The notes below the pieces were generated by a model. That model was not told the origin of the DNA and made no database searches. It worked only from the letters and a program-made list of their open reading frames with translations. From contig NZ_AP022590.1 in the NCBI RefSeq assembly GCF_010731775.1, positions 1,860,001-1,924,000 of the forward strand: DNA of 64,000 nucleotides, in the 5' to 3' direction. Position 1 is the first letter of the stretch, and the number at the start of each line of letters is the position of its first letter. Of this stretch, positions 17,884 to 18,845 are shown piece after piece. Source of the DNA: Mycobacterium mantenii (lineage in GTDB: Bacteria; Actinomycetota; Actinomycetes; Mycobacteriales; Mycobacteriaceae). A program made the translations under genes and the position numbers.

Positions 17884-18741
17884 TTGAAGAAACTGGGATC
17901 GACCCGACCCGGTGCGGCCAAGCCGCCTAAGGGGCAGCGCGACCGGTCGCGGCGGCGGCTGCGCCGCCGGCTGTCCGGTGGCCTGCTGCTGCTGATCGCG
18001 CTGACCATCGCCGGCGGTCTCGCCGCCATCCTGACCCCGCGGCCCCAGGTGGCCGTCGCCGACGAGTCGAACTCGGCGCTGCTGCGCACCGGCAAGCAGC
18101 TGTTCGACACGTCCTGCGTGTCCTGCCACGGCGCCAACCTGCAGGGTGTTCCCGACCGCGGGCCGAGCCTGATCGGTGTCGGCGAAGAAGCCGTCTACTT
18201 CCAGGTGTCGACCGGCCGGATGCCCGCGATGACCGGCGAGGCCCAGGCACCGCGCAAGGAACCGATCTTCGACGAGGCACAGGTCGACGCCCTGGGTGCC
18301 TATGTCCAGGCCAACGGCGGCGGCCCCACCACGGTGCGCAACCCGGACGGCAGCCTGGCGATGCGCTCGCTGCGCGGCGAGGACCTGGGCCGCGGCGGCG
18401 ACCTGTTCCGGCTGAACTGCTCTTCCTGCCACAACTTCACCGGCAAGGGCGGCGCGCTGTCGTCGGGTAAGTACGCGCCGGACCTCGAGCCCGCCAACGA
18501 GCAGCAGATCCTGGCGGCCATGCGGACCGGCCCGCAGAACATGCCGAAGTTCTCCGACCGCCAGCTGTCCTTCGAAGCCAAGAAGGACATCATCGGCTAC
18601 ATCAAGGCCGTCACCGAGGAGCGCCAGCCGGGCGGCTACGGCCTGGGCGGATTCGGGCCCGCACCCGAGGGCATGGCCGCCTGGATCATCGGGATGGTCG
18701 CCGCCATCGGGCTGGCACTGTGGATTGGGGCACGAGCATGA
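17884..18741 (+). CDS. qcrC: Dihaem cytochrome cc subunit QcrC of the bcc complex
   Basis: A 285-aa protein with an N-terminal membrane anchor (LSGGLLLLIALTIAGGLAAI), two c-type haem-binding motifs CVSCH (~residue 78) and CSSCH (~180), and a C-terminal membrane helix (MAAWIIGMVAAIGLALWIGA). The two haems replace the separate soluble cytochrome c and pass electrons directly to the aa3 oxidase. The TTG start (MKKLGSTRP) is used because the nearby GTG at 17875 runs into a stop after three codons. Its stop is part of an ATGA whose ATG opens the MIRU-encoded small ORF. Confidence 0.96.
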   Translation: MKKLGSTRPGAAKPPKGQRDRSRRRLRRRLSGGLLLLIALTIAGGLAAILTPRPQVAVADESNSALLRTGKQLFDTSCVSCHGANLQGVPDRGPSLIGVGEEAVYFQVSTGRMPAMTGEAQAPRKEPIFDEAQVDALGAYVQANGGGPTTVRNPDGSLAMRSLRGEDLGRGGDLFRLNCSSCHNFTGKGGALSSGKYAPDLEPANEQQILAAMRTGPQNMPKFSDRQLSFEAKKDIIGYIKAVTEERQPGGYGLGGFGPAPEGMAAWIIGMVAAIGLALWIGARA

Positions 18742-18845
18742 GCCGCGCCGAGACGATGCAGAGCGAAGCGATGAGGAGGAGCGGCGCAAACGAGCCAGCC
18801 GCGACGATGCAGAGCGAAGCGATGAGGAGGAGCAGCGCAAAATGA
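18738..18845 (+). CDS. MIRU-encoded small ORF between qcrC and qcrA
   Basis: A 35-codon ORF lying wholly in the repeat. It starts MSRAETMQSEAM and contains the hexapeptide TMQSEA twice. Its ATG overlaps the qcrC stop (ATGA at 18738-18741) and its TGA overlaps the qcrA ATG (ATGA at 18842-18845). This is the arrangement described for mycobacterial interspersed repetitive units, in which the repeat-borne ORF bridges neighbouring cistrons. The peptide is probably less important than the continuous translation it allows. In M. tuberculosis, qcrA is annotated to begin MSRA at the corresponding place, so frame use may differ here. Confidence 0.6.
   Translation: MSRAETMQSEAMRRSGANEPAATMQSEAMRRSSAK
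18740..18841 (+). repeat. Mycobacterial interspersed repetitive unit (MIRU), two tandem units
   Basis: Two near-identical units of 51-52 bp (18740-18791 and 18792-18841) share the core GACGATGCAGAGCGAAGCG followed by ATGAGGAGGAGC. This is the MIRU core as I know it. The units lie between two respiratory genes and carry stop/start overlaps at both edges. The AGGAGGAGC blocks could also act as ribosome-binding sequences for qcrA. Confidence 0.85.

What the first reader, a model, noticed from the sequence alone, without database searches (positions are those of the whole stretch)
18738..18845. Two-unit MIRU stitches qcrC to qcrA through a 35-codon ORF with ATGA overlaps at both ends
The two MIRU units form an ORF whose ATG overlaps the qcrC stop and whose TGA overlaps the qcrA ATG, so ribosomes could pass from qcrC through the repeat into qcrA. 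MIRU elements with such overlaps are established from M. tuberculosis. What deserves attention is the site: stoichiometry of the essential bcc complex would depend on repeat copy number. One unit is 51-52 bp; a 51-bp change would keep frame, a 52-bp change would not. In the other frame the repeat would extend QcrA at its N-terminus.
Basis: partly seen in the sequence, partly recalled or inferred. Interest (0 to 1): 0.72.

Follow-up and report, generated by a model that had tools for sequence, protein, structure and literature searches.

The report
Two-unit MIRU between qcrC and qcrA
A known kind of small mobile DNA repeat sits exactly where one respiratory-chain gene ends and the next begins; it carries its own tiny reading frame and ribosome-binding motif, so the operon can probably still be translated, and the same kind of insertion turns up at other genes and in related species.

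Summary
Confirmed: a two-unit MIRU forms a 35-codon ORF (18738-18845) with 4-nt ATGA overlaps to qcrC and qcrA. This architecture is already described for MIRUs (review PMC12548453, passages seen), so it is a new member of a known kind.

Of 119 Mycobacterium junctions, 20 carry a MIRU, 98 are bare DTGA overlaps, one carries another repeat. Only the window has two units. In 17 of 18 non-fused cases the small ORF closes 4 or 8 nt past the qcrA A; the last passes through two short ORFs. In two species, and by peptide match in M. tuberculosis QcrA (PDB 7E1V), the repeat codes the QcrA N-terminus; not in the window.

The site is not special: nuoG, rpsH and kdpE-like sites show similar presence/absence. 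The stoichiometry idea has no support here. Each of the 18 non-fused MIRUs puts AGGAG or GGAGG before qcrA; the 98 bare junctions have no such motif.

Most novel by-product: a 35-bp repeat in 168 of 396 genomes follows the same overlap rule (26 of 27 sampled sites with both flanks; 1 fused); 23 of 24 listed arrays have a period of 2 mod 3. I found no description of it.

The parts
17884..18741 (+). qcrC, diheme cytochrome c subunit; stop overlaps the small ORF
   Evidence: NCBIfam NF050122, E 1.3e-107
18738..18741 (+). left ATGA: qcrC stop and small-ORF start
   Evidence: the same place is the direct qcrC-qcrA overlap in 98 bare species
18738..18845 (+). 35-codon ORF made of two MIRU units
18741..18791 (+). 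MIRU unit 1 (51 nt as cut)
18790..18793 (+). ACGA where other arrays have ATGA between units; lets both units read as one ORF
   Evidence: compared with arrays
18792..18842 (+). MIRU unit 2 (51 nt as cut)
18825..18830 (+). AGGAGG, Shine-Dalgarno-like, 11 nt before the qcrA ATG
18842..18845 (+). right ATGA: qcrA start and small-ORF stop
18842..20068 (+). qcrA, Rieske iron-sulfur subunit (408 codons plus stop); overlaps qcrB
   Evidence: NCBIfam NF050121, E 3e-116
20065..21753 (+). qcrB, cytochrome b subunit, itself joined to qcrA by an ATGA

Best explanation
A MIRU of a variant with the left end GCCGAGACGAT inserted at the ATGA that joins qcrC to qcrA, probably once in an ancestor of the M. avium-complex-like clade (inferred), and was lost again in many lineages (inferred). 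In the window's lineage it is doubled and its inner ATGA reads ACGA. QcrA still begins at the downstream ATGA (shown by comparison). Ribosomes ending qcrC most likely restart on the 35-codon ORF, end 4 nt into qcrA and restart there, helped by the AGGAGG that the repeat supplies (inferred from anatomy; not measured). The repeat is best seen as an insertion built to be tolerated in operons, not as a regulator specific to the bc complex.
For: Bare DTGA overlap in 98 of 119 species, MIRU in 20. Of the 20, twelve have 4-nt overlaps at both ends, five an 8-nt overlap with qcrA through ATGANTGA, two are fused in frame, and one (L227) chains through two ORFs. An SD 4-mer at -18..-5 occurs in 18 of 18 non-fused MIRU junctions and in 0 of 99 others, that is 98 bare plus L237 tested at its left ATG. 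Presence of the repeat needs 15 changes on the tree of flanks, at least 9 forced by starred branches. Similar mosaics at nuoG, rpsH and a kdpE-like gene. SD in 37 of 37 MIRU sites with a downstream ORF of 60 codons or more in this genome. Published description of MIRU coupling at -4 nt.
Against: No expression data. MIRUs are open in two of three frames, so intact stitching is partly built in: reading the 18 non-fused junctions from shifted frames also gave an acceptable end or fusion in 3 (+1) and 15 (+2) of 18, against 17 in the true frame. Three of the five 8-nt cases sit in one clade and share ATGAGTGAGG. Of the 42 MIRU sites of this genome, 9 gave no left/right pair; of the 33 others, 13 end 4 nt past the start, 4 are arrays whose first unit ends inside the array, 5 end 1-25 nt past, 3 are in frame, 5 end 12-17 nt early and 3 end elsewhere; length variants outside arrays are 2 mod 3 in 8 of 18, near chance. 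One old insertion with losses is not separated from repeated insertion or exchange between species.
Confidence: 0.75

Rival explanations
1. Copy-number switch: the number of repeat units tunes QcrA output relative to QcrC and so the stoichiometry of the bc complex.
For: The repeat is tandem here. MIRU-VNTRs vary in copy number between isolates elsewhere (PMC2734929, passages), and PMC4128351 (passages) says that VNTR copy-number variants can alter promoter activity of neighbouring genes.
Against: One unit in 19 of 20 MIRU-bearing species; 10 of 20 near relatives have none (the handles); the inner ATGA is lost, so the two units are no longer separate coupling steps. Strain-level variation could not be tested.
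Confidence: 0.07
2. The repeat acts mainly as a portable ribosome-binding site: AGGAGG starts qcrA independently and the small ORF is incidental.
For: SD 4-mer in 18 of 18 non-fused MIRU junctions and 0 of 99 others; 37 of 37 MIRU sites with a downstream ORF in this genome; remnants in front of nuoG (L325) and the kdpE-like gene (L370) keep the GGAG end.
Against: The 35-bp family follows the same overlap rule although only 14 of 30 sampled sites carry an SD 4-mer, so overlap rather than SD is the common feature.
Confidence: 0.3
3. QcrA is translated through the repeat and carries a repeat-coded N-terminus.
For: The frames allow it in L174 and L180. The QcrA chain of PDB 7E1V, M. tuberculosis by its paper, begins with a peptide matching a MIRU-coded one at E 4e-8.
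Against: In the window the only in-frame start codon upstream of ATG 18842 is TTG 18725, inside qcrC; bare relatives start at the single DTGA.
Confidence: 0.04

Closest known systems
MIRU (mycobacterial interspersed repetitive unit), Supply et al. 1997 (not read), as summarised in PMC12548453
   Same: Dispersed repeat, inserted at a start codon, small ORF with -4 nt spacing to the downstream gene
   Different: Two units fused into one 35-codon ORF by loss of the inner ATGA; the site qcrC-qcrA was not found in the papers searched
M. tuberculosis QcrA (PDB 7E1V chain M)
   Same: N-terminal residues 1-22 match a peptide coded by the MIRU at this junction in L154
   Different: There the repeat-coded peptide is part of QcrA; in the window the repeat is a separate ORF
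35-bp ATGA repeat found here in other mycobacteria
   Same: Same placement at ATGA, 4-nt overlaps, tandem arrays with period 2 mod 3; also at qcrC-qcrA in L237, L040 and (fused) L068
   Different: Different, shorter sequence; SD 4-mer in 14 of 30 sampled sites; 0 pattern matches in the window's genome

Membership tests
MIRU | Dispersed repeat of 40-100 bp in a mycobacterial genome | tested here: met
   43 matches, 52 matches; size range from PMC2734929
MIRU | Inserted at DTGA between co-oriented genes, with bare counterparts in relatives | tested here: met
   control sites
MIRU | Small ORF overlapping both neighbours | tested here: met
MIRU | Sequence match to the published M. tuberculosis MIRU DNA consensus | tested here: inconclusive
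   The published consensus was not at hand; only a MIRU-coded peptide was matched, to the M. tuberculosis QcrA of PDB 7E1V
MIRU | Mobilised by a transposase | not tested
   No transposase was sought; mobility is inferred from filled and bare sites
MIRU-VNTR | Copy number varies between strains | not testable with these tools
   One genome per species is held
Translational coupling (termination-reinitiation) | Stop and start overlap by 4 nt on the same strand | tested here: met
Translational coupling (termination-reinitiation) | Downstream translation depends on upstream translation | not testable with these tools
   Needs an experiment

The most novel reading that the evidence does not exclude
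Mycobacteria carry at least two families of short operon-stitching repeats, the 53-bp MIRU and an apparently undescribed 35-bp repeat with a largely complementary spread. Both enter at ATGA gene junctions and keep reading by units of length 2 mod 3, both have hit the same qcrC-qcrA junction, and both at times become protein N-termini, as with QcrA of M. tuberculosis.
Probability: 0.6. Interest if true: 0.6.

Novelty: new member of a known kind. Interest (0 to 1): 0.4.

Why it matters
It places a MIRU between two genes of the cytochrome bc complex and shows, by comparison of filled and bare sites, what such an insertion does to an operon: it keeps reading continuous, adds a ribosome-binding motif, or becomes part of the next protein. 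The second, 35-bp family with the same length rule offers an independent test of whether overlap-coupling selects for these repeats.

Tried and rejected
Rfam search of 17800-20200 at E up to 1: no match. A first SD energy calculation gave -7.6 at the median and both quartiles of the non-MIRU sites; I took this for pairing with conserved codons further upstream and replaced it with a nearer window. The 3' end of 16S rRNA was recalled; a 16-mer of it occurs once in the genome, but its place in 16S was not checked. The qcr site as a hot spot: not favoured, since three control sites give similar mosaics; two of 20 views at nuoG were shifted and one each at rpsH and the kdpE-like gene was unreadable. 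Strict frame preservation: rejected as strong evidence, because shifted frames also often end well. Compensation in L117 (D 52, ATGAGTGA) against M. nebraskense L035 (D 53, ATGAGCGA) is a single contrast and not claimed. Papers were searched; no listing there joins MIRU with qcrA or describes the 35-bp repeat, but the library lacks most subscription papers, and I did not read Supply 1997.

Full report
What is there. The window is from a 6.19-Mb single-contig Mycobacterium genome. Its closest named match by QcrA is a record titled Mycolicibacterium vulneris, 97% identical (records very near the window's genome may be left out there). Between qcrC (17884-18741) and qcrA (18842-20068) lies a two-unit repeat read as a 35-codon ORF, 18738-18845, with ATGA overlaps at both ends. 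The gene names rest on NCBIfam. The repeat is a MIRU: 43 matches in this genome, its own included, 52 with a one-unit query; both searches scored 40 candidates, so these are lower bounds.

The bare site. I took the qcrC-qcrA junction from 120 further genomes of the genus, the best QcrA matches listed. Two were cut by contig ends (L129, L185), leaving 119 with the window. Of these, 20 carry a MIRU, one (L237) carries another repeat, and in 98 the qcrC stop and qcrA start overlap directly in DTGA (92 ATGA, 6 GTGA). Among 80 named records (partly the same species) six carry a MIRU: M. arosiense L010, M. scrofulaceum L034, M. nebraskense L035, and L014, L019, L043. So QcrA of the window starts at 18842. 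In its frame the only start codon further upstream is TTG 18725, inside qcrC.

What the insertion does to reading. D is the distance from the left to the right start. In 12 of 20, D is 2 mod 3 and the small ORF overlaps qcrA by 4 nt. In five, D is 1 mod 3 and the ORF closes 8 nt into qcrA through ATGAGTGA or ATGACTGA. In two (L174, L180) the repeat is in frame with QcrA. In one (L227) the first ORF ends 15 nt early, at an ATGA that starts a second ORF ending 8 nt into qcrA. Inserts inside the repeat that look palindromic by eye lengthen D from 53 to 80, 86, 110 and 110, each by a multiple of three (L154, L103, L099, L116). Against a strong reading: the +2 shifted frame also ended well or fused in 15 of 18, and the +1 frame in 3 of 18, against 17 of 18 in the true frame. 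A MIRU is open in two frames, so part of this is built in.

The rest of the genome. I inspected 42 MIRU sites. Nine gave no left/right pair. Of the other 33, 13 end 4 nt past the downstream start, 4 are arrays whose first unit ends inside the array, 5 end 1-25 nt past, 3 are in frame with the next ORF, 5 end 12-17 nt early and 3 end elsewhere. Among 18 length variants outside those arrays 8 are 2 mod 3, near chance. The rule is therefore a tendency, not a law.

Fusion to QcrA. The peptide coded by the repeat of L154 matches residues 1-22 of the QcrA chain in PDB 7E1V at E 4e-8. It also matches residues 21-44 of FadD8 in 8IVI, E 2.6e-6. The 7E1V paper says its QcrA is M. tuberculosis Rv2195 (PMC8616580, passages seen). 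Whether that N-terminus is made in the cell was not shown here.

Ribosome-binding motif. A 4-mer of AGGAGG lies at -18..-5 of qcrA in 18 of 18 non-fused MIRU junctions and in 0 of 99 others (98 bare, and L237 tested at its left ATG). Duplex energies are -8.6 to -11.6 against a median of -4.7 kcal/mol. In this genome 37 of 37 MIRU sites with a downstream ORF of at least 60 codons have it.

History. On a tree of 119 flanking sequences, with the junction left out, presence of the repeat needs 15 changes, at least 9 forced by starred branches. By eye, most copies in the M. avium-like clade share an unusual left end, which favours one insertion and many losses; L227, L154 and L174 with L180 look like separate insertions.

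Is the site special? Not by the test made. The same 20 near relatives were examined at three other MIRU sites of this genome. nuoG: 8 full copies and one remnant of 20, two of the 20 views (L335, L338) shifted. rpsH: 8 of 19 readable (L352 shows other sequence). kdpE-like gene: 3 full and two possible remnants of 19 readable (L376 is cut). The qcr site has 10 of 20. Two-unit copies occur there too (L326 at nuoG; L354, L358 at rpsH). In this genome MIRUs also precede nuoM and frr (the KdpE match there is below its curated cut-off). So a MIRU in front of a gene of a core complex is ordinary, and a role in bc-complex stoichiometry has no support.

A second family. Three junctions (L040, L068, L237) carry a different element. 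A pattern made from it hits 168 of 396 genomes of the genus; I saw no hit of the reversed control pattern in that table. By my reading, only G156 and G167 of my 121 genomes have it, while all 121 have the MIRU core (178 of 396 overall). Of 30 sampled loci, one per genome, 27 have both a left DTGA and a right start. Of these, 23 chain to a 4-nt overlap, 3 to an 8-nt overlap and 1 is fused; three lack a pair (L290, L303, L315), and in L316 the right-hand frame is only 7 codons long. The pattern includes the right-hand ATGA, so that side is partly selected for; a shorter pattern without it, in three genomes, also found ATGA directly after the repeat in most clear copies, with chance hits among its three-mismatch matches. 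Of 24 tandem arrays visible in the partly listed table, 23 have a period of 2 mod 3 (35 in 20, 32 in 3; one has 34). MIRU arrays in their listing are more mixed: 12 of 19. The two consensus sequences share a weak local similarity reached by 30 of 2000 shuffles, so common descent is possible. An SD 4-mer is present in 14 of 30. Sister genomes G167 (filled, L237) and G156 (bare, L221) differ at qcrC-qcrA itself.

Known or new. A 2025 review states that MIRUs insert at start codons so that their ORF is coupled to the gene with -4 nt spacing, citing Supply 1997 (PMC12548453, passages seen). The window's element is therefore a new member of a known kind. The qcr site, the fusion to QcrA and the 35-bp family were not found in the papers searched, a library that lacks most subscription journals.

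Noticed in passing
L265, L268, L276, L280, L288-L317; qcr junction in L237, L040, L068: A 35-bp repeat (pattern GCGAGNAGCGGAGGCGGATCGCGCATGA) at ATGA gene junctions in 168 of 396 genomes, in tandem at 35 or 32 bp; possibly an undescribed MIRU-like family.
   Followed up: partly
L174 and L180 (qcrC-qcrA junction): The MIRU is in frame with QcrA and would encode its N-terminus; the QcrA chain of 7E1V (M. tuberculosis) and FadD8 of 8IVI carry matching peptides.
   Followed up: partly
L099, L103, L116, L154: GC-rich inserts, palindromic by eye, inside the MIRU at the qcr junction, lengthening it by 57, 33, 57 and 27 nt relative to 53.
   Followed up: no
L325 (nuoG), L370 (kdpE-like): Truncated MIRUs that keep only the GGAG...GGCGC end next to the start codon.
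   Followed up: no
L337 against L334 (nuoG); L362 against L372 (kdpE-like): Filled and bare sites in near relatives suggest a target duplication of about 7 bp around ATGAC rather than DTGA alone (read by eye).
   Followed up: no
L213, L254: Two other MIRUs of the window's genome are in frame with the downstream ORF.
   Followed up: no
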